Shown: positions 18,744 through 27,980 of the stretch, in pieces | Position numbering within the stretch: the first letter of the stretch is position 1 | Layout: every line of letters starts with the position of its first letter | Assembly (NCBI GenBank): GCA_947497245.1 | Contig: CANMFO010000008.1 | Coordinates: forward strand, 62,001 to 126,000 | Direction of reading: 5' to 3' | Length of the DNA stretch: 64,000 bases | Origin: an uncultured Flavobacteriaceae bacterium | Lineage (GTDB): Bacteria; Bacteroidota; Bacteroidia; Flavobacteriales; Flavobacteriaceae | Made by a program: the position numbers and the translations under genes | The notes under the pieces: generated by a model | Database searches by the model: none | Told to the model about the DNA's origin: nothing | The model's input: only the letters and a program-made list of their open reading frames with translations

Positions 18744-20276
18744 ATGCAAAACAACGTCCTTATCCTTGACTTCGGTTCCCAGTACACACAACTCATCGCC
18801 AGACGGGTCCGGGAACTGAACATTTTCTGTGAGATCAAACCTTTCAACAAACTTCCGGGGGACCTTTCGGCCTATAGGGCGGTGATCCTATCGGGATCTC
18901 CTTTTTCGGTCCGGGGAGATGATGCCCCCCATCCGGACCTCTCCCAGATCAAGGGCAAAATACCGGTATTGGGCGTGTGCTATGGGGCGCAGTATTTGGC
19001 CCATTTCAACGGGGGCAACGTGGCGGCCAGCAATACCCGGGAATACGGCCGGGCCAATGTTTCCCATATCAAGGAGGGGGAGGCCTTCTTCGATGGGATT
19101 TCCGTGGGGAGCCAGGTATGGATGAGCCATTCCGATACCATAAAGAAGCTCCCGGAAAACACCGTGCTGTTGGCCAGTACCCACGATGTGGAGTATGCCG
19201 CCTATAAATTTGAGGGGGAGGACACTTACGGCATTCAATTTCACCCGGAGGTGTACCACACCACCGACGGGAAGCAGCTGTTGGAAAACTTTTTGGTCAA
19301 TATCGCCGGAGTGGCCCAGACCTGGACCCCGGATGCCTTTGTGGGATCTACCGTGGCCGCACTGAAAAAGAAGATCGGGGACGACAAGGTGATACTGGGA
19401 CTGTCGGGAGGGGTAGACTCTACCGTGGCCGCCGTGCTCTTGCACAGGGCGATCGGCAAGCACCTGCACTGTATTTTTGTCAACAACGGGCTTCTCCGCA
19501 AGAACGAGTTCGAGGATGTCCTGGAACAATACAAGGGCATGGGCCTCAATGTAAAGGGCGTGGATGCTTCGGCACGCTTTTTGGATGCCTTGGCCGGGGA
19601 GAGCGATCCCGAAACAAAGCGGAAGACCATCGGAAGGGTATTTATCGAAGTTTTTGACGACGAGGCCCATTTGGTCGAAGATGCCAAATGGCTGGCACAG
19701 GGCACCATCTATCCCGATGTAATTGAATCGGTCTCCGCCACGGGAGGGCCATCGGCCACTATAAAAAGCCATCACAATGTCGGCGGATTGCCCGATTTTA
19801 TGAAGCTGAAGGTCGTGGAGCCCTTAAAGATGTTGTTCAAGGACGAAGTGCGCCGGGTAGGGGCAAGTGTGGAGGTCGGCGAAGAGCGCCTGGGCCGCCA
19901 TCCCTTTCCGGGACCGGGACTTGCCATTCGGATCCTGGGCGATATTACGAGGGAAAAAGTGGCCATATTACAAGAAGTGGACCATATTTTCGTTCAAGGT
20001 TTAAGGGATTGGGGACTTTATGACAAGGTCTGGCAGGCCGGAGCCATGCTTTTGCCCGTAAATAGTGTAGGGGTCATGGGCGACGAGCGCACCTATGAAA
20101 AATGTGTAGCTTTACGGGCCGTGGAAAGTACCGATGGAATGACCGCCGATTGGGTAAATTTACCCTATGAATTTTTGCAAAAAACATCGAACGACATTAT
20201 CAATAGGGTACCGGGCGTGAACAGGGTGGTATATGATATCAGCTCCAAACCACCGGCAACCATAGAATGGGAATAG
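18744..20276 (+). CDS. guaA: GMP synthase (glutamine-hydrolysing)
   Basis: GuaA converts XMP, ATP and glutamine to GMP in purine synthesis. The chosen ATG at 18744 gives 510 residues; the frame extends to 18708 but translates the promoter. Domain order is glutamine amidotransferase (catalytic Cys in GVCYGAQ, His in FHPEV), ATP-pyrophosphatase (PP-loop [11 protein letters not shown]) and the C-terminal dimerisation domain with [16 protein letters not shown]. All catalytic elements are intact. The stop is two bases before the start of the LysM-PBP1 gene, so guaA heads an operon with it, an OsmC gene and a DUF922 gene. Confidence 0.97.
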
Positions 20277-20278
20277 AT

Positions 20279-22441
20279 ATGAACCGATTTTTGAAAAACA
20301 CCTTCGCACTCCTCGTGCTCCTTATGATGGGCTGTAAGGTCATGGCGCAAAAGTTTGCAACGCACCAGGTAAAGCATGGCGAGACCCTTGAAAGCATTGC
20401 CAAACAGTATCAGGTGACCCCCTATAACATCCTAACGTACAACAAGGAGATCACTTCGGGACAGGAATTGACGCCGAATACCATTTTGGTGATCCCGCTA
20501 CAGGGCCCTTCCGAAAATACCGGGGAGGTACCGGTGACCACTGGTGAAGACATCGAGGAACCAGGAGAACTCGCCACCCAAGAGGAGCCCATAGGTTTTA
20601 CCTCGCACAGGGTCAGAAGAAAAGAGACCCTGTACGGCATTGCCAAACAGTACGATATCACCGAGGAGGATATCAAGCGGTACAACCAAGATCTTTACTC
20701 AGCACAATTGAAGAAACGCATGGTACTGCGTATTCCAAAGTACAGGGAAATCGATCCCAACGACCCCAACGATCCCGGAAATTTCGACATGTACACTGTT
20801 GCCCCCAAAGAGACCCGATGGAGCATTGCCCATAAAAATGGCATCACCTTGGACAGTTTACTGACGCTGAACCCAGAGCTTTCCAGGACCTCGGACTATC
20901 TAAGGGAGGGTCAGGAACTGAAAATACCCAAGAAGCCCGGGGGCATGATCGAAGAACAGGAAACCCAGTTGTACATATCCTACACGGTGCCCCCCAAAAT
21001 GAACTTCTATCAATTGAAGCAACAGTTCGGGATCGATTATGATGAAGTGGTACGATTGAACCCGGAGATCGTGGAGCGCAACGGCCTAAAGGAGGGCATG
21101 GTCATCCGTCTTCCGGAGCAAAAACTGGACCCAGGGGAAATAAATACGGACAATTACATCTTCTACGAGGTAAAGCCAAAGCAGACCCTGTTCTCGCTTA
21201 CCAGAAAACTGGGCCTGAGCTATAAGGAACTCATATTGTTGAACCCCGATCTCCAGAACGGGCTCGATGCCGGGATGGTGCTCAAATTGCCCAAGGAGCA
21301 GACCGGGAATTTCGAGGTCCGCAACGCATTGGTCCTGGACAAGATCGACCTATTGGACAGTGTCAACATAGAAAACAGGCCCAAGGTCATGTTCCTGTTG
21401 CCCTTTCGGTTGGACCGTTTGGATCTGGGCGACCGGGAATCGGTTGCCAGTGCCATTGAAAAAAGAAATGATGTGCGGTTGAGCCTCGGGCTGTACTCGG
21501 GCGCCCTGATCGCTTTGGATTCCATTGCCGAACTGGGCATTTCAGTGGATGTAAAGACCTTTGACAACCAGTTGAACCTGAATACGACCAAAGAAATATT
21601 GGGCCGGGAAAACCTATCGGACCTCAATGCCATATTCGGCCCCTTGGACGGCCCTTCCCTAAAGGAGGTGGCCATTAGGGCCGCCGGCAACCGGGTACCG
21701 GTGATAGCGCCCATCCGTGTGCAGAGCGATATCAGTCTGCCCAATGTGTTTTTCTCCTATACCCCGGTGGAAGTGCTCCGGGAGCGCATGCTAACCTATA
21801 TGGATACCTTGGTGACCGACCAGCATATCGTGATCATCGCCGATGAAAAGCACAAACCCGTGCAGAACTTTATTTTGCAGAGGTTCCCCAATGCGGATAC
21901 CCTGGAGATCAAGAAAGAGGAAAAGAGCATTGGGATCGATCTTGAAAAGCTCGCCGAACTTTTGACGGAAGAAAAGGACAACTGGGTGTTCGTGGAGACC
22001 GATGATTTCAGGTTGGTGTCCAGCGTAAGTTCCATCCTTAACTCGAGCAATACGGAGGAGATCAAAGTGCGCATGTTCACCACGAACAAGAACAGGGCCT
22101 TCGAGAACGAAGTGGTCTCGGTCTCCCACCTGTCGAACCTGAACTTCACCTATCCCTCGGTACACCGCGAGGTAGGGGGCAACGCCTTTGTGAAACGGTA
22201 CCAAAAGAGGTTCGGGAGCGCGCCGGACCGCTTTGCGGTCAGGGGGTTCGACATCATGTACGACCTGCTTTTAAAGCTGGCCTATAGGAACGATCTGTTC
22301 GTCATTTCGCAGATTATAGGCGAGACCGAATACAACGGGAACAAGTTCAGTTACGAAAAAGATGCGGCCTCGGGGTATTTTAACCAATCGTCCTATATCA
22401 TCTCGTACGACGACATGCAGATCAAGGAAATAAAACCATAA
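20279..22441 (+). CDS. LysM-repeat protein with PBP1-type ligand-binding domain
   Basis: This 720-residue exported protein starts at 20279, two bases after the guaA stop. The signal peptide ends near MMGCKVMAQ; a cysteine there leaves lipidation possible, but MAQ processing looks equally good. Five LysM-like peptidoglycan-binding modules follow (about 26-70, 107-150, 170-215, 230-276, 286-330), the first two canonical (HGETLESIAKQYQVTPYNI) and the rest divergent. The C-terminal about 370 residues resemble a type I periplasmic-binding (receptor ligand-binding) domain, opening with PKVMFLLPFRLDRL. This arrangement recalls LpoA-like lipoproteins that stimulate peptidoglycan synthases, so a cell-wall role is plausible but inferred. 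Confidence 0.85.
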   Translation: MNRFLKNTFALLVLLMMGCKVMAQKFATHQVKHGETLESIAKQYQVTPYNILTYNKEITSGQELTPNTILVIPLQGPSENTGEVPVTTGEDIEEPGELATQEEPIGFTSHRVRRKETLYGIAKQYDITEEDIKRYNQDLYSAQLKKRMVLRIPKYREIDPNDPNDPGNFDMYTVAPKETRWSIAHKNGITLDSLLTLNPELSRTSDYLREGQELKIPKKPGGMIEEQETQLYISYTVPPKMNFYQLKQQFGIDYDEVVRLNPEIVERNGLKEGMVIRLPEQKLDPGEINTDNYIFYEVKPKQTLFSLTRKLGLSYKELILLNPDLQNGLDAGMVLKLPKEQTGNFEVRNALVLDKIDLLDSVNIENRPKVMFLLPFRLDRLDLGDRESVASAIEKRNDVRLSLGLYSGALIALDSIAELGISVDVKTFDNQLNLNTTKEILGRENLSDLNAIFGPLDGPSLKEVAIRAAGNRVPVIAPIRVQSDISLPNVFFSYTPVEVLRERMLTYMDTLVTDQHIVIIADEKHKPVQNFILQRFPNADTLEIKKEEKSIGIDLEKLAELLTEEKDNWVFVETDDFRLVSSVSSILNSSNTEEIKVRMFTTNKNRAFENEVVSVSHLSNLNFTYPSVHREVGGNAFVKRYQKRFGSAPDRFAVRGFDIMYDLLLKLAYRNDLFVISQIIGETEYNGNKFSYEKDAASGYFNQSSYIISYDDMQIKEIKP

Positions 22442-22445
22442 CGAT

Positions 22446-22850
22446 ATGACGTCAAAGGTCACCTACAACGGAGAATTGAGGACAAGCTGCGAACACCTGC
22501 GCTCTGGGGACACCTTTATCACCGACGCGCCCGTGGACAACAATGGGCGGGGGCAGGCCTTTTCCCCCACCGATACCGTGGCCACCGGCCTGGCCAGTTG
22601 CATGTTGACGATGATGGGCATTAAGTCCAGAGGCCTGGAAGTGGATCTGGAAGGCTCTACCGCCGAGGTCACAAAACACATGGCCGCGGGCCCCAGGCGA
22701 ATCTCCAAAATCGAGGTAAGGCTCAGCCTGCCGGCGGATATATCGGGGAAAGACCGAAAGATATTGGAACATACCGCCGAAACCTGCCCGGTGCTCTATA
22801 GCCTGCACCCCGATATAGAAAAAGAAATTAGCTTCGATTGGGTGCTCTAA
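22446..22850 (+). CDS. OsmC family peroxiredoxin-like protein
   Basis: The 134-residue OsmC-fold protein reduces organic hydroperoxides in its best-studied relatives. The two family cysteines are present: Cys52 (in LASCMLTMMG) and Cys114 (in ETCPVLYSL), as expected for thiol peroxidase chemistry. It belongs to the YhfA-like branch rather than Ohr, judged by the SPTDTVATGL motif before the first cysteine. It starts 4 bp after the LysM gene and its end overlaps the TTG start of the DUF922 gene, so it is cotranscribed. The gene for BshC (bacillithiol) lies just downstream on the other strand, a loose thiol-redox link. Confidence 0.88.
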   Translation: MTSKVTYNGELRTSCEHLRSGDTFITDAPVDNNGRGQAFSPTDTVATGLASCMLTMMGIKSRGLEVDLEGSTAEVTKHMAAGPRRISKIEVRLSLPADISGKDRKILEHTAETCPVLYSLHPDIEKEISFDWVL

Positions 22851-23389
22851 AGTACATACTGTCCATTGCCCTGTTCTTGGGAACGGGCTTGTCGTCGTTC
22901 CAGGAAGAGGTGACCATTGCGTGGTCGCCGGAGGTCCGTCTGAGTTGGGACGATTTTAGGGGAAAACCCCAGAACTCAAGGGCGGCAGCGGTCACGGCAA
23001 GCGGTATTACCTATCATTTCTCCTCGATGGCCACTGGGGACGAGGTGGAGTTGGACTTTACCGTGAGCACCTTTTTCTACCCGGACAAGTCCTGGTACCA
23101 TCCCGAGGTCTGTGATTCGGTGATCTTGAGCCACGAACAATTGCATTTTGATATTTCAGAACTCTTCGCTCGGAAAATGCGCAGGCGCTTAAAGGATACC
23201 AGGTTCACCAAGAACGTGAAGGCCGAGGTCAGGGTCATTTACCAGGAGACGATCAGGTCCCTTCACGACTTTCAAAACAGATACGACGACGAGACCAATT
23301 TCTCCAGGGACCGCGAACAACAATTTGCCTGGAACACGAAGATCGCCGAGGCGTTGGAGATGGAACAGTTTGATCCCGACAACCCCTAA
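22838..23389 (+). CDS. DUF922-type putative metal-dependent exported protein
   Basis: The 183-residue protein must start at TTG 22838, overlapping the OsmC gene by 13 bp; no ATG exists before the hydrophobic signal ALKYILSIALFLGTGLS. It matches DUF922, with WDDFRGKP, the protease-like motif HEQLHFD (H-E-x-x-H) and the following SELFARKMR helix. The motif suggests zinc binding and possibly peptidase activity, but none has been shown to my knowledge. It is the last gene of the guaA operon and precedes the phased box array. Confidence 0.75.
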   Translation: MGALKYILSIALFLGTGLSSFQEEVTIAWSPEVRLSWDDFRGKPQNSRAAAVTASGITYHFSSMATGDEVELDFTVSTFFYPDKSWYHPEVCDSVILSHEQLHFDISELFARKMRRRLKDTRFTKNVKAEVRVIYQETIRSLHDFQNRYDDETNFSRDREQQFAWNTKIAEALEMEQFDPDNP

Positions 23390-23410
23390 AACAGGACCTT
23401 TTTAGCGATG

Positions 23411-23618
23411 CCCTAGGGATTTTTCAAAAACCTCCAGGGCATTTTTGTATTTTGCCCTGGGCATATTTTCAATTTGCCCAGGGCATCCCTGTACTATCCC
23501 TAGGGCATCCTTGCACAATCCCCAGGGCATCGTGCCACAACCCCTAGGGCATCCTGACAGGATGCCCAGGGTATATTTTTATTTTCCCCAGGGCATTCTC
23601 CGATTATCCCTAGGGGAA
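23411..23618. repeat. Ten-copy array of near-palindromic 8-bp boxes with 22-bp spacing
   Basis: Ten boxes of the type CCCTAGGG, CCCCAGGG or GCCCAGGG, most followed by CAT, lie between the convergent DUF922 and bshC genes. The last G of the boxes falls at 23418, 23439, 23461, 23483, 23505, 23527, 23549, 23571, 23593 and 23615: one step of 21 and eight steps of exactly 22 bp. An eleventh, degraded box (CCCGTGGCACAT) is in phase at 23637. The bases between boxes differ from copy to copy. The period is not a multiple of 3 and neither strand encodes a plausible protein. Neighbouring boxes can pair as hairpins. The function is unknown. Confidence 0.9.
23543..23580 (+). terminator. Hairpin within box array, possible terminator
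   Basis: GGGCATCCTG (23547-23556) and CAGGATGCCC (23558-23567) form a perfect 10-bp inverted repeat around one base, extended outward by further pairs. TATATTTTTATTTT follows on the plus strand. It is placed to end the guaA-DUF922 transcript, although its loop is very small and it is also boxes 7 and 8 of the array. Confidence 0.5.
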
Positions 23619-23695
23619 ACGGCATATCGGCCCGTGGCACATATGTTCCAAAGGGGGTTGTAAAGGAAAATATCGGGACGTAAGGTCGTTGGGCC

Positions 23696-25297
23696 CTAGT
23701 ACCTGAGCACCGAAAATTCGAGCTGTAGCGGATCCAGGGCCCCCAGGAGGGTGGGTACCAGGTCCGGCCCCAGTTCCAGGTACAGTTCGGAGAAGTTCTG
23801 GGAACGTTCCTGTAGGGATCCATTGGGGAAAAGGGCGTTCTGAAGCTCGGTCATCCGCACCACATGGTCTTTTAGCTTGCGCTTCTGGGCCTTCAAGAGC
23901 CGTTTTTCGAGACGGTCCAGCCCCTTTTTCTGTTTTGTTTCCTGTGCCCTTACCGCTCCCAGGAAAGAGGGATCGGTTTCCTCTGACAGCTTATGAAGTT
24001 GTTCGAACTGCTCTTCCAGGTACTTTTTTTGCGGTGAAAAATCGATGTCTATGTTCGAGATCTCCCTGATCTTTTTGTTGATAAAGCTGTTTTGCTCCAG
24101 GAACAGGTCCCGTACCGTGAGGTTCATCCTGCCCAATTTTTTGGCCTGTTTTTCGGAAATGGCCAAAACGGAATTTCGCAACAGCAAGATCGGGAAGGGC
24201 ACCTCCATGGCATGGAACATGGATTTTAGTTCGAGCCAATAGGCGATTTCGCCACCGCCTCCGACATAACAGAGATTGGGGAGGATCGCCTCCTGGTAGA
24301 GCGGTCTGGCTATCACGTTCGGGGAGAAGCGTTCCGGATGCTTTTCGAGTTCGGCCCGAAGCGCTTCCTCCGTGAAGGAAATATCGGTTTCGTTGACATG
24401 GTACCGGCCCTCTTTTTCAACAAGGCGTTCCCGGATATCCCCTTTCAGATAGAAATGGTTGATCTCCCGTGGATTGACCTGGATCCCATATTTGGAGGGC
24501 AGTTCCCGGATCTGGGCAACGGTGGCGGAGACCTTGTCAAAGGCAAGTCTTTCAAAAATATCTTTCTCCGCATAGGGCACCGCCAACCGTTTCAGTTCGG
24601 CATCATCGCCGTCCACGATCACCAGGCCGTACTCGCCAAAGAGCGCATTGGCCAGGTAACGTGTCGCTTCCGCAAGGGTACCGTGCTCCAGATAGGCCGC
24701 TTTAAAAAGCGCCTTCAGGGCATCTGCGTGCCTACCGCTCCCGACTTCCTGCGACAGGGCCGCGAAGACCTCTTGTAGCCCGTCCGTGGAAAGACGCCCC
24801 ACGGCCCCCTCGGCCTTTTTGTTCCATTGGAGCTTCTTGCCCTTCAGGTTAAAGTGGTTGATCTCTTCAAAATCGTGGTCCTCGGTCGCCATCCAGTACA
24901 CCGGTACAAAGTGGTACTTCGGATACGCCTTTTTGAGCGTTTTGGCCAAGTTAATGGTAGAAACGATCTTGTACAGAAAGTACAGGGGCCCCGTGAACAG
25001 GTTCAATTGGTGCCCGGTGGTAATGGTGAACGTTATGGGTTCTTTGAGCTGTTTGAGGTTGTCCGCGGTCGTTTTCGAGGGGGTGGTGCCTCGGTACTGT
25101 CGTTGTAGGGCATCGTACAGTACTTCACGATGGTGGTTTGGAAAATGGGACGCCTTCTCCTCGATCTGTCCCTTAAAGCCCTGCAGGTCAAAAAAACGGT
25201 TGTAATAGGGCCCCAGAACTTCCTTTTGATCAATATAGTCACATATCAATTGTGGGAAATAACCGGTCTGTTCAAAGGGAATACGATCTATATCCAT
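23696..25297 (-). CDS. bshC: Bacillithiol biosynthesis cysteine-adding enzyme BshC
   Basis: BshC is thought to add cysteine to GlcN-malate in the last step of bacillithiol synthesis. The 533-residue length fits the family. Signature segments are TGHQLNLFTGPLYFLYKI, MATEDHDFEEI (a Rossmann-like core with acidic residues) and CYVGGGGEIAYWLELK. A coiled-coil insertion occupies roughly residues 415-485. Bacillithiol genes bshA and bshB are not in this window, as is usual for dispersed Bacteroidota loci. The gene is convergent with the guaA operon across the phased box array. Confidence 0.95.
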   Translation of the reverse strand: MDIDRIPFEQTGYFPQLICDYIDQKEVLGPYYNRFFDLQGFKGQIEEKASHFPNHHREVLYDALQRQYRGTTPSKTTADNLKQLKEPITFTITTGHQLNLFTGPLYFLYKIVSTINLAKTLKKAYPKYHFVPVYWMATEDHDFEEINHFNLKGKKLQWNKKAEGAVGRLSTDGLQEVFAALSQEVGSGRHADALKALFKAAYLEHGTLAEATRYLANALFGEYGLVIVDGDDAELKRLAVPYAEKDIFERLAFDKVSATVAQIRELPSKYGIQVNPREINHFYLKGDIRERLVEKEGRYHVNETDISFTEEALRAELEKHPERFSPNVIARPLYQEAILPNLCYVGGGGEIAYWLELKSMFHAMEVPFPILLLRNSVLAISEKQAKKLGRMNLTVRDLFLEQNSFINKKIREISNIDIDFSPQKKYLEEQFEQLHKLSEETDPSFLGAVRAQETKQKKGLDRLEKRLLKAQKRKLKDHVVRMTELQNALFPNGSLQERSQNFSELYLELGPDLVPTLLGALDPLQLEFSVLRY

Positions 25298-25427
25298 ATA
25301 AGGCTTGAAAATGCTGGTAAATATAAAACGCTTTGTTTCTCCAAGTTCCTAAAAATACGTTAATTACTTTAATCTTGGATTTCGCACCGCGCAGCGGATT
25401 TTAGGGCTTTTTTTCCTACAAATTCAT

Positions 25428-25435
25428 TAGATTTG
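25428..25435 (+). promoter_or_regulatory. Possible -7 element for M14 peptidase gene
   Basis: TAGATTTG matches TAnnTTTG but lacks a TTG at the normal distance upstream. It would give a leader of about 85 nt before the TTG start at 25527. Confidence 0.3.
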
Positions 25436-25526
25436 ACAGGGATTGGGGCATGGTATCGGCCCGTTTTGGCCCTTGTACGAAAACCGTGGCCCCCTTTCCG
25501 AAAAAATATAACCTAAACTCTGTCGT

Positions 25527-27980
25527 TTGAGAACATTTTTACTTTCACTTACCTTCACCATATCCATGGCCCTGACCGCACAGGACCTAAAATCGCCCTC
25601 CGAATTTTTGGGCTACGAACTGGGCACCCAGTTCACACGGCACCATGAGGTGGTCGACTATTACCAATATGTGGCCACTATGGCCCCGGACCGGGTGCAG
25701 CTGAACGAATACGGCAAGACCAACGAGCGCAGACCGTTGTTGTTGGCCTATGTTTCCTCCACTGCGAATATCGCCGATCTGGAAAACATCCGGCAAGAGC
25801 ATTTGAAGAACACTAGGGGGGAGGGCAGCCCTTCAAAGGCCATAGTGTGGCTCAGCTACAACGTCCATGGCAACGAGAGTGTAAGCACGGAAGCATCGAT
25901 GCAGACCCTTTACGATCTGTTGACCGCTAAAAAGGAGTATTTGGAGGATACGGTGGTGATCATGGACCCCTGCATCAATCCAGATGGGCGCGATCGTTAT
26001 GTGAACTGGTACAACCAGAACAAGAACGTCCCCAACAATGTGGACCCCAATAGCAAGGAGCACCACGAGAGCTGGCTCAATGGCCGTTCCAACCACTACA
26101 TGTTCGATCTCAACAGGGATTGGGCGTGGCTCACACAGATAGAGAGCCAGCAGCGCCTCAAGTTCTTTAACAAGTGGCTGCCCCATGTGCATGTCGATTT
26201 TCACGAGCAGGGCGTTGACAACCCGTACTACTTTGCCCCGGCGGCGGAACCCTTTCACGAGGTGGTCACCGATTTCCAAAGGGATTTTCAAGTGACGATA
26301 GGAAAGAACCACGCCAAGTATTTTGATGCCCACGGCTGGTTTTATTTTACCAAGGAGGTCTACGATCTGTTGTACCCGAGCTATGGCGATACCTATCCCA
26401 CCTATAACGGGGGAGTGGGCATGACCTATGAGCAGGGGGGCAGCGGTAAGGCCGGACTGGGGGTCATTACCGGTATTGGGGATACGCTTACCCTGAAGGA
26501 CCGGATCGCGCACCACCATACCACCGGACTTTCCACGGTCGAAGTCGCCTCCAAAAATGCACAGAAGTTGAACAACGAGTTCAAAAAGTTCTATCAGAAC
26601 AAGAATTTCAAGTACAAGAGTTACGTGATGAACGGCGATCCTGATAAACTGGATGCGCTTACCGATCTGCTCGACAAACACGAGATCCAATACGGTTCCG
26701 GGAACAATGCCACCCTAAAGGGCCATGATTTTGGAAAGGGCGGAACGGGGAATATGCGCATTTCGGAACGGAGCCTGGTGGTTTCCACCGATCAGCCCAA
26801 GGGTACTTTGGTGAAAGTACTGTTCGAGCCCGATGCAAAGTTGAGCGACTCGGTTACCTATGATATCACCGCCTGGTCGTTGCCCTTCGCCTATGGGCTG
26901 GACGCCCTGGCCTCCAACAGCACGGTCCAGACAGGCACCTATAGGAAACAAGGGCCCGTTACGACGGGATTGGATCCCAATGCCTACGCCTTTCTTACCG
27001 ACTGGGACAGTATGGACGATGCCCGCTTTCTGGCCGCCCTGCTCCAACAAAAAATACGGGTGCGCCGTGCGCTGAAACCCTTTTCCATCGATGGAAAACA
27101 ACACGAACGGGGCAGTTTGATCATCACCCGGGCCGACAACAAGAACAACAAGGACTTTTTGGACATCTTACGGAAAACCGCCTTGGAACATGGCAAGGGC
27201 CTGGTCGCAACGGCCACCGGATTTGTAGATTCGGGCAAGGACTTTGGATCGGATTATGTACAGATGGTACCGGACACCAAGGTGGCCATACTCTCCGGCG
27301 GACCGACCTCTACCCTAAGGTTTGGCGAAATATGGCACTTCTTTGAACAGCAGTTGCACTATCCCGTGGCGGTGATAGACAGCGAATATATGGGCCAGGT
27401 GGACCTTTCAGGGTACGATGTCCTTGTACTGCCGGGGGGCTGGGGCTATCCCGGATTTATGGACGGATCGAAATTGGAGGAAATAAAGGAATGGGTCGGC
27501 AACGGCGGGAAGTTGATCGCTATGGGCGGCGCCATCAAGGGCCTTACCGGGGAGCACGGGTTCGGTCTGAAACCGGTGAAGGCGGAAAAGGACAGTACCG
27601 TGAACCTGCAATCGTACGAAGCGACGGAACGGGACCAGATAAAAAGGGCCATTACGGGGGCCATTTTCAAGACCAGGGTAGACAATACCCATCCATTGGC
27701 CTATGGTTATCCAGACACCTATTTCAGCCTAAAATTGGGTTCCGATGCCTATCAGTACCTGGATGCGGGCACCGTGGTGTACCTGGAGGAGGGAAACAGC
27801 GATCCCATAGCCGGATTCGCAGGTAGCGAGGCCAAAAGGAAAATAGGCAAAACGCTCGTCTTCGGAGTGGAGGACCATGGGCAGGGGTCCGTGATCTATA
27901 TGGTCGACAATCCGCTTTTTAGGGGCTTTTGGGAGAACGGAAAACTCTTTTTTGCCAATGCACTTTTTATGGTGGATTAA
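25527..27980 (+). CDS. M14 family zinc carboxypeptidase with GATase-like C-terminal domain
   Basis: This exported 817-residue protein starts at TTG 25527, the only start that keeps the signal peptide (MRTFLLSLTFTISMALTAQ). The M14 domain (about 45-340) has the zinc motif HGNES, a second zinc histidine in HVDFHEQG and the catalytic Glu in MTYEQGG. After a middle domain, residues about 590-690 resemble a class I glutamine amidotransferase/ThuA fold: AILSGGPTSTLRFGEIWHFF then YDVLVLPGGWGYPG. The usual catalytic cysteine is not obvious there, so this part may only bind or hold structure. It would remove C-terminal residues from peptides. This domain order is typical of Bacteroidota M14 proteins. 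Confidence 0.88.
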   Translation: MRTFLLSLTFTISMALTAQDLKSPSEFLGYELGTQFTRHHEVVDYYQYVATMAPDRVQLNEYGKTNERRPLLLAYVSSTANIADLENIRQEHLKNTRGEGSPSKAIVWLSYNVHGNESVSTEASMQTLYDLLTAKKEYLEDTVVIMDPCINPDGRDRYVNWYNQNKNVPNNVDPNSKEHHESWLNGRSNHYMFDLNRDWAWLTQIESQQRLKFFNKWLPHVHVDFHEQGVDNPYYFAPAAEPFHEVVTDFQRDFQVTIGKNHAKYFDAHGWFYFTKEVYDLLYPSYGDTYPTYNGGVGMTYEQGGSGKAGLGVITGIGDTLTLKDRIAHHHTTGLSTVEVASKNAQKLNNEFKKFYQNKNFKYKSYVMNGDPDKLDALTDLLDKHEIQYGSGNNATLKGHDFGKGGTGNMRISERSLVVSTDQPKGTLVKVLFEPDAKLSDSVTYDITAWSLPFAYGLDALASNSTVQTGTYRKQGPVTTGLDPNAYAFLTDWDSMDDARFLAALLQQKIRVRRALKPFSIDGKQHERGSLIITRADNKNNKDFLDILRKTALEHGKGLVATATGFVDSGKDFGSDYVQMVPDTKVAILSGGPTSTLRFGEIWHFFEQQLHYPVAVIDSEYMGQVDLSGYDVLVLPGGWGYPGFMDGSKLEEIKEWVGNGGKLIAMGGAIKGLTGEHGFGLKPVKAEKDSTVNLQSYEATERDQIKRAITGAIFKTRVDNTHPLAYGYPDTYFSLKLGSDAYQYLDAGTVVYLEEGNSDPIAGFAGSEAKRKIGKTLVFGVEDHGQGSVIYMVDNPLFRGFWENGKLFFANALFMVD

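What the first reader, a model, noticed from the sequence alone, without database searches (positions are those of the whole stretch)
23411..23640. Array of ten near-palindromic boxes phased at 22 bp between convergent genes
Ten boxes (CCCTAGGG, CCCCAGGG, GCCCAGGG and close variants, usually followed by CAT) end at 23418, 23439, 23461, 23483, 23505, 23527, 23549, 23571, 23593 and 23615. After one step of 21, all eight steps are exactly 22 bp, while the 9-14 bp between boxes are not conserved. An eleventh, decayed box stays in phase at 23637. Two helical turns per step would put every box on the same face of the DNA, as expected for sites bound by a multimeric protein (titration, nucleoid or replication-type site), with sequence kept only where bound. 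The location is downstream of both neighbours, so it is not an ordinary operator. I know of no described element with this layout.
Basis: seen in the sequence. Interest (0 to 1): 0.8.

Follow-up and report, generated by a model that had tools for sequence, protein, structure and literature searches.

The report
Orphan binding array of HU-type protein
Ten evenly spaced DNA boxes between two bacterial genes are one copy of an array that, elsewhere in the same genome, lies right behind the gene for a DNA-bending (HU-type) protein; such gene-plus-own-array pairs recur in related bacteria and may be an undescribed way of marking and organising DNA.

Summary
The array is not unique. The genome has four arrays of this box, in convergent, divergent and co-directional gaps. 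One begins 11 bp after the stop codon of a gene for an HU-type protein with an Ig-like DUF4469 domain. Three paralogs exist; two have a 22-bp array just downstream, each with another box, and both boxes also have orphan arrays elsewhere. Over the phylum, a Treponema plasmid and two phage contigs, 36 of 43 such genes have a 22-24-bp array downstream, 0 of 42 upstream, and 1 of 38 other genes. The window array is thus read as an orphan site of a protein-array module; the likely mechanism is a same-face HU-Ig nucleoprotein filament or bridge. Binding is inferred, not shown, and box sequence follows protein sequence only weakly. Nine congeners lack both the gene and this array; in eight, DUF922 and bshC adjoin without it. 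No paper listed in ten searches describes the pairing.

The parts
23411..23615 (.). Array of ten boxes (reverse-strand orientation ATGCCCTAGGGATnnTnnnAgg), 22-bp phase with one 21-bp step; orphan copy of the type-1 array
   Evidence: three further type-1 arrays in the genome
23630..23637 (.). In-phase, decayed eleventh box (GCCCGTGG); doubtful
22838..23389 (+). Left neighbour, DUF922 protein; found beside bshC in 8 of 9 congeners, without the array
23696..25297 (-). Right neighbour, bshC (bacillithiol biosynthesis cysteine-adding enzyme), convergent
   Evidence: TIGR03998, 470 bits; matches in 10 of 10 genus genomes

Best explanation
The window array is an orphan member of a protein-array module. 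The module consists of (a) a gene for a protein of about 233 aa with an N-terminal HU-type DNA-binding domain (PF14848) and a C-terminal Ig-like DUF4469 domain (PF14734), and (b) a 'home' array of boxes spaced 22-24 bp downstream of the stop codon (starting 0-305 bp after it, within 30 bp in 15 of 35 cases). Orphan arrays with the same box lie elsewhere on the chromosome; this is one of three for its type. Shown: the arrays, the home positions, their recurrence, and a different box for each of the three paralogs that have an array. Inferred (about 0.65): the protein encoded beside the home array binds that box. Inferred (about 0.3): HU dimers sit on every box on one helical face, bend the DNA in phase and pack side by side with the Ig domains outward, making a compact filament that can bridge home and orphan arrays. 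The array would then be a chromosome-marking or partition-like anchoring site, not a promoter operator.
For: The type-1 home array begins 11 bp after the HU-DUF4469 stop codon. The paralogs at C5:170893 and C1:998974 have 22-bp arrays with other boxes just downstream. A joint query for these two found both home arrays and six orphan arrays, no type-1 array, and the type-1 query found neither of them. 36 of 43 genes have an array downstream, 0 of 42 upstream, 1 of 38 other ORFs of the same loci; all 42 proteins aligned match both domains. Parabacteroides distasonis: 6 of 6 genes found, six different boxes. In 5 of 35 cases a terminator-like hairpin lies between stop codon and array (0.07 expected), so there the array probably acts as DNA. 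The next gene is on the same strand in 23 and the opposite strand in 14 of 37 cases, so the array goes with the HU gene rather than the next gene. The unit is dyad-symmetric at 10 or fewer of 200 column permutations in 16 of 36 arrays (about 2 expected), fitting a dimer. Nine congeners lack both the gene and the type-1 array.
Against: No binding data. Box similarity follows protein similarity only weakly (Mantel rho 0.108, 39 of 500 permutations as high); L200 and L204 are 92% identical proteins of one genome with different boxes. Recognition may be mainly structural, or lie in a few residues. Dyad symmetry fails in 20 of 36 arrays, among them all three home arrays of the window's own genome (115, 115 and 12 of 200). 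Seven of 43 genes miss the strict cut: L213 (2 of 200), L229 (6), L258 (17), L201 (20), L207 (83), L197 (97), L208 (150); L197 is one of the window genome's own four paralogs. CCCTAGGG arrays also occur in genomes where no PF14848 match reaches the cut-off (0 of 8), so the protein there, if any, is another one. The anchoring function rests on analogy.
Confidence: 0.6

Rival explanations
1. Mobile or selfish module: the gene with its array, or the array alone, spreads as a non-coding repeat (REP- or MITE-like), and the phase reflects how the mover reads it. The window array is then a descendant with no host function.
For: Patchy distribution (1 of 10 genus, 5 of 397 family, 15 of 395 phylum genomes, the window genome counted in each). 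DUF922 and bshC adjoin without the array in 8 of 9 congeners. Homologues on a Treponema plasmid, Parabacteroides records filed as plasmids, and two phage contigs. The type-1 home gene lies on the opposite strand inside a core block pyrH-frr / MMPL-asnS-rpoN. Neighbours mostly differ from locus to locus.
Against: Neither Pfam domain of the protein is a catalytic one. At the window array the best direct flank match is no better than chance, and the best inverted match is 8 bp, reached by 9 of 200 shuffles, a borderline value. Plain repeats would not need a 22-24-bp phase kept across unrelated box sequences.
Confidence: 0.2
2. Transcriptional regulation: arrays are operator clusters through which each HU-type protein controls itself and a small regulon.
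For: In 15 Flavobacterium and Flavobacteriaceae loci, CCCTAGGG arrays lie directly upstream of an HU-HIG gene in 3 (PF18291; L054, L082, L106) and of a short HU-like ORF in a fourth (L100, by eye), and upstream of a tyrosine-recombinase gene in 5 (one cut by the contig end). Two own-genome type-1 arrays lie upstream of genes.
Against: Arrays are downstream of their own HU-DUF4469 gene (36 of 43; upstream 0 of 42) and 14 of 37 next genes converge. The window array is downstream of both neighbours. 40 array loci fetched from two other genomes lie in tandem gaps 21, convergent 8, divergent 7, other 4, so no promoter preference.
Confidence: 0.12
3. RNA-level element: the repeats work in the transcript, as 3' hairpins or as a repeat RNA paired with the protein (type III toxin-antitoxin-like).
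For: The + strand folds far better than shuffles (z -7.7), as any palindrome array would. 15 of 35 home arrays start within 30 bp of the stop codon, so many may be transcribed.
Against: In 5 of 35 a terminator-like hairpin precedes the array. The window array lies between convergent genes and no sigma-70-type promoter match was found (Bacteroidota promoters differ, so this is weak). Rfam matches are all far under the gathering score. A fixed 22-24-bp phase has no evident reason in RNA.
Confidence: 0.05
4. The HU genes and the arrays are linked only historically: repeat-prone sequence sits downstream of the gene and the protein does not bind it.
For: Weak coupling of protein and box divergence; neighbouring units share spacers.
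Against: Side, closeness and phase are kept while the sequence turns over, and the four type-1 arrays keep the box more than the spacer (81% against 46% across arrays).
Confidence: 0.03

Closest known systems
Iteron arrays of plasmid replication origins (Rep protein and iterons; recalled)
   Same: Direct repeats near 22 bp (two turns) next to the gene for a DNA-binding protein; each protein with its own repeat; same-face multisite binding.
   Different: Protein is HU-Ig, not an initiator; array is downstream of the gene; no DnaA-type box within 3 kb of the window array (not tested at the home arrays); several arrays per genome.
ParB-parS and other chromosome-marking site systems (recalled)
   Same: A dedicated DNA-binding protein, a cis site by its gene and extra sites elsewhere.
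   Different: HU-type domain, no ParB match; sites are arrays; the box changes from paralog to paralog; distribution is patchy.
REP sequences and RAYT (recalled)
   Same: Short palindromes dispersed in intergenic DNA, with a home copy beside a protein gene.
   Different: The home gene encodes HU-DUF4469, with no transposase domain; fixed 22-24-bp phase.
BrickBuilt, minisatellite MITE of Porphyromonas gingivalis (PMC4596501; abstract, outline and matched passages seen)
   Same: A Bacteroidota intergenic array of 23-nt repeats, 19 copies in one genome.
   Different: Repeats without spacers, with leader, tail and terminal inverted repeats like those of IS5-family elements; its 23-nt consensus is not the box here; the passages seen name no partner protein. 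Whether HU genes lie beside BrickBuilt copies was not tested.
HU/IHF superfamily, HU-HIG and related clades (Pfam PF14848, PF18291; a 2017 Cell Cycle paper is recalled, not held)
   Same: The protein is a member by sequence; a solved homologue exists (4fmr, E 8.7e-42, uncharacterised).
   Different: I know of no report that these proteins have phased arrays beside their genes; the word DUF4469 is in no paper of the library.

Membership tests
HU-DUF4469 protein-array module (defined here) | Home gene encodes a PF14848 + PF14734 protein | tested here: met
   Home gene of the type-1 box, (42 of 42 aligned proteins)
HU-DUF4469 protein-array module (defined here) | 22-24-bp phased array downstream of the gene | tested here: met
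   36 of 43; the type-1 home array is among them (L194)
HU-DUF4469 protein-array module (defined here) | Window array has the same box as the home array | tested here: met
HU-DUF4469 protein-array module (defined here) | Protein binds the boxes | not testable with these tools
   Needs EMSA, DNase footprint or ChIP; sequence co-divergence is weak
Iteron replication origin | Initiator (Rep) gene next to the array | tested here: not met
   Scanned window neighbours: LysM, OsmC, DUF922, BshC and M14 proteins; home neighbour HU-DUF4469
Iteron replication origin | DnaA-type box near the array | tested here: not met
   None in window 20,000-27,000 for TTATNCACA or TTWTNCACA, both strands; home arrays not tested
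ParB-parS | ParB-family protein | tested here: not met
   Pfam gives HU-type, DUF4469 and a few weak unrelated matches, no ParB
ParB-parS | Role in segregation | not testable with these tools
   Needs genetics or imaging
REP/RAYT | Y1 transposase encoded beside the home copy | tested here: not met
   whether such a gene exists elsewhere in the genome was not searched
MITE (BrickBuilt type) | Terminal inverted repeats and target duplications | tested here: inconclusive
   Window array only: 8-bp inverted match reached by 9 of 200 shuffles; direct match 143 of 200
Plain tandem repeat | Spacers as well conserved as boxes | tested here: not met
   Mean 1.52 bits per box column, 0.66 per spacer column, 36 units

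The most novel reading that the evidence does not exclude
These bacteria carry a new class of DNA-marking systems. An HU-superfamily protein has been turned into a sequence-selective, Ig-bearing filament protein that is encoded next to its own phased array and acts at a few orphan arrays spread over the chromosome to bridge and position DNA. Several mutually orthogonal copies can run in one genome, and the box turns over faster than the protein.
Probability: 0.35. Interest if true: 0.92.

Novelty: categorically new. Interest (0 to 1): 0.8.

Why it matters
HU-family proteins are normally treated as weakly sequence-selective DNA benders, with IHF the exception (recalled). A family whose members mostly sit beside their own helix-phased array, with boxes that differ even between paralogs of one genome, gives a ready set of protein-site pairs for asking how an HU fold gains selectivity, how same-face arrays shape DNA, and what marks chromosomes in this phylum. 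It also gives DUF4469 proteins, whose name is in no paper of the library searched, a concrete testable target: the DNA just behind their own genes.

Tried and rejected
Convergent-gene terminator: rejected, no terminator-like site at the array, and other copies lie in divergent and co-directional gaps.

Known RNA family: only matches far under the gathering score.

BrickBuilt identity: rejected on repeat sequence and structure from the passages seen.

Planctomycete hits as relatives: rejected; they share one large palindromic element and match only through the query pattern. Hits in Streptomyces and similar genomes look like plain tandem repeats or chance (by eye).

A shared CCCTAGGG core in Flavobacterium, Alloprevotella and the window genome is not read as descent, because selected for that core.

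Integrase link: seen only beside Flavobacterium-type arrays; the best match in the window genome is a partial one (query 191-341) on another contig; not pursued.

HU homologues in viral contigs: three scans found none.

Protein-box co-divergence as proof of recognition: tested, weak.

Other arrays in the congeners' DUF922-bshC gaps: none at 22-24 bp in the five gaps long enough to test, and three gaps (9, 13, 56 bp) too short to hold one. A 23-bp signal in L188 lies outside the gap, in the end of the DUF922 gene. Arrays of other boxes elsewhere in the congeners were not searched.

Superseded: one search used a register one base off for one array (one search replaces it; one search had another slip in the same array); one search is replaced; one search took the wrong frame for L248 (one search gives the right one).

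Left out before counts: of the loci, L217, L218, L219 and L226 (weak DUF4469 hits in other proteins) are not; the three with enough downstream sequence (L218, L219, L226) showed no array. L216, L225 and L231 repeat the window genome's own genes. Six further non-own places had no locus and were not examined. L262 (gene in two pieces) was counted for its downstream array, but its protein is not in alignment A2. One search used the 36 genes that passed; one search used 35 (these without L262); one search used 36 (these without L262, with L213).

Full report
OBSERVATION. Pairs of boxes at this distance are expected 0.03 times in the window and found 6 times, all in the array. Boxes are conserved (79-80% between units) and spacers much less (40-51%), but two spacer columns are kept across arrays.

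NOT ALONE. The window's own genome is G000 (5.25 Mb, 34 contigs); no tool names it, and I take it for a member of the Flavobacteriaceae, phylum Bacteroidota, from its genes and relatives (inference). The array finds three more in it. A triple-box pattern with up to 2 mismatches gives 40 forward and 43 reverse hits against 0 and 1 for the reversed control; nearly all lie in these four arrays, and one 2-mismatch hit on contig C3 is not an array. The arrays lie on contigs C8 (the window), C1 (twice) and C2. Settings differ: convergent (window); divergent between a PIG-L-domain gene and a cytochrome c-domain gene; between a P-II gene and a gene on the same strand; and between an HU-type gene and frr.

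THE PARTNER. The C2 array begins 11 bp after the stop codon of a 233-aa protein with an HU-type DNA-binding domain (PF14848, 79.9 bits) and an Ig-like DUF4469 domain (PF14734, 53.7 bits). The gene has four copies in the genome and no match at E <= 1e-10 in the nine other genomes of the genus (three of these are 81-87% complete), the same nine that lack the type-1 array. Two of the other three copies are followed by 22-bp arrays with unrelated boxes, starting 68 and 2 bp after the stop codon. The fourth, near mreB, has none. Both boxes also have orphan arrays elsewhere: four for the C5 paralog (one weak, E 5.7e-6) and two for the C1 paralog. That makes 12 arrays in three separate sets, each with one home array.

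GENERALITY. HU-DUF4469 genes are rare and patchy: 5 of 397 family genomes (11 genes); a DUF4469 match in 15 of 395 phylum genomes and 0 of 14 control genomes; two plasmid records and two phage contigs; five more Parabacteroides records (filed as plasmids, probably chromosome pieces in my view). I tested 43 such genes: 11, 23, 9 from plasmid and phage records. In the 420 bp downstream, 36 beat all 200 dinucleotide shuffles for repeats of 22-24 bp. Upstream 0 of 42 did, and downstream of other ORFs of the same loci 1 of 38 (100 shuffles) did. Misses: L213 (2 of 200), L229 (6), L258 (17), L201 (20), L207 (83), L197 (97), L208 (150). The boxes differ almost everywhere. Parabacteroides distasonis TSDC17.2 has six such genes in the records found, one of them in two pieces, and six different arrays. 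All 42 aligned proteins match both domains. Two single-domain HU-HIG genes of Alloprevotella (L243, L248; PF18291 73 and 71 bits) have a 23-bp array of AGTTGAGTGCGCACTCAACT downstream, so the pairing may reach beyond DUF4469 proteins; they are 2 of the 12 loci checked around weak PF14848 hits.

WHAT THE ARRAY IS TIED TO. The next gene is on the same strand in 23 and opposite in 14 of 37 cases. In 5 of 35 cases a terminator-like hairpin separates stop codon and array (0.07 expected); in 15 of 35 the array starts within 30 bp of the stop codon and may be transcribed. Unit dyad symmetry is significant (10 or fewer of 200 permutations) in 16 of 36 arrays, fitting a dimeric binder, but in none of the window genome's three home arrays. 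Box similarity follows protein similarity only weakly (rho 0.108, 39 of 500): the pairs L213/L228 and L210/L223 (88% and 85% identical) keep a common core, while L200 and L204, 92% identical, do not. This is the main result against a simple recognition story.

ORIGIN OF THE WINDOW COPY. DUF922 and bshC adjoin in 8 of 9 congeners with 9-274 bp between the matches; in the ninth no DUF922 match was found beside bshC. Three of the eight gaps are too short for an array and the other five show no 22-24-bp repeat (26 to 161 of 300 shuffles as high). The window array was therefore most likely gained in this lineage (inference; loss in all others is not excluded). No clear terminal repeats were found.

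OTHER GENOMES. A scan of one genome per species (84,980, by the tool's description) for three exact CCCYRGGG boxes at 22 bp gave 76 stretches. Among them are Flavobacterium, Alloprevotella and another Bacteroidales genome with many arrays: pair counts 13, 86 and 39, and 4 to 8 in the other six of the nine genomes examined; reversed-pattern control 0 in all nine. The query selected for this core, so the shared core is no sign of descent. In 15 Flavobacterium and Flavobacteriaceae loci the array lies directly upstream of an HU-HIG gene in 3 (L054, L082, L106), of a short HU-like ORF in one (L100, by eye), and of a tyrosine-recombinase gene in 5 (one cut by the contig end). PF14848 reaches its cut-off in 0 of 8 genomes with such arrays, so the partner there, if any, is another HU-type protein. 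40 array loci from two of them lie in tandem 21, convergent 8, divergent 7 and other settings 4 (ORF calls are mechanical).

MECHANISM. Shown: the module's anatomy and recurrence. Inferred: the neighbour protein binds its array (about 0.65). Inferred further (about 0.3): in-phase bending and side-by-side packing of HU dimers on one helical face, with Ig domains as contacts between neighbours or between distant arrays, giving a filament or bridge that marks and positions DNA. Rivals: selfish module (0.2), regulation (0.12), RNA function (0.05), merely historical link (0.03).

KNOWN AND NEW. The solved homologue 4fmr is uncharacterised. Of ten paper searches, three returned more papers than were listed; no listed paper describes the pairing by title and abstract start, and DUF4469 is in 0 papers. 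One paper, on BrickBuilt, was opened (abstract, outline, passages). A 2017 paper on HU superfamily clades, which I recall as predicting a role in chromosome partition for Bacteroidetes members, is not held and was not read. Iterons, parS and REP/RAYT each share a trait and fail a defining one; for MITEs the test is inconclusive.

Searches were added; the statement on dyad symmetry, the Flavobacterium counts, the array distances and the literature wording were mended.

Noticed in passing
L050, L054, L057, L083, L117 (Flavobacterium sp. C8_D7_003): Repeats of about 250 bp appear to alternate with unrelated ORFs, and in L117 the phased array lies just upstream of an integron-integrase-like tyrosine recombinase (NF040815 229 bits; TIGR02249 213 bits, under its cut-off of 265); perhaps an integron-like cassette cluster.
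   Followed up: partly
L050, L054, L057, L085, L097, L107 and other Flavobacterium loci: Next to the CCCTAGGG boxes and in the same 22-bp phase sits one palindrome with another core, CTGTACAG, found in several species.
   Followed up: no
L042, L044, L056, L060, L067, L105, L110 and further planctomycete loci: A dispersed palindromic element of about 66 bp (GAAGCCCCGGGGTGAGGTACTCCGAACCCCGGGGTTCGGAGTACCTCACCCC...) on many contigs of three planctomycete assemblies; REP- or MITE-like.
   Followed up: no
L046:2636 onward and L066:4555 onward (Prevotellaceae RUG310): Arrays of 18 and 14 units of 22 bp with nearly fixed spacers (GTCTCCCTGGGGGCAATTTTTT).
   Followed up: no
L262:2137-2863 (Parabacteroides distasonis): HU-DUF4469 gene annotated as two overlapping pieces, with a 23-bp array still present downstream.
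   Followed up: no
L263:2408-3193 (Parabacteroides distasonis): HU-DUF4469 gene and array lie on the opposite strand between an ABC permease and an ABC ATP-binding gene, as if inserted.
   Followed up: no
L168, L169, L178 (Bacteroidales RUG13039): Arrays in which both the box and the spacer look palindromic, giving dyads every 11 bp (by eye).
   Followed up: no
L100:545-799 (Flavobacteriaceae Tobar13m-G22): A short ORF beside the array resembles the start of an HU-HIG protein and ends early.
   Followed up: no
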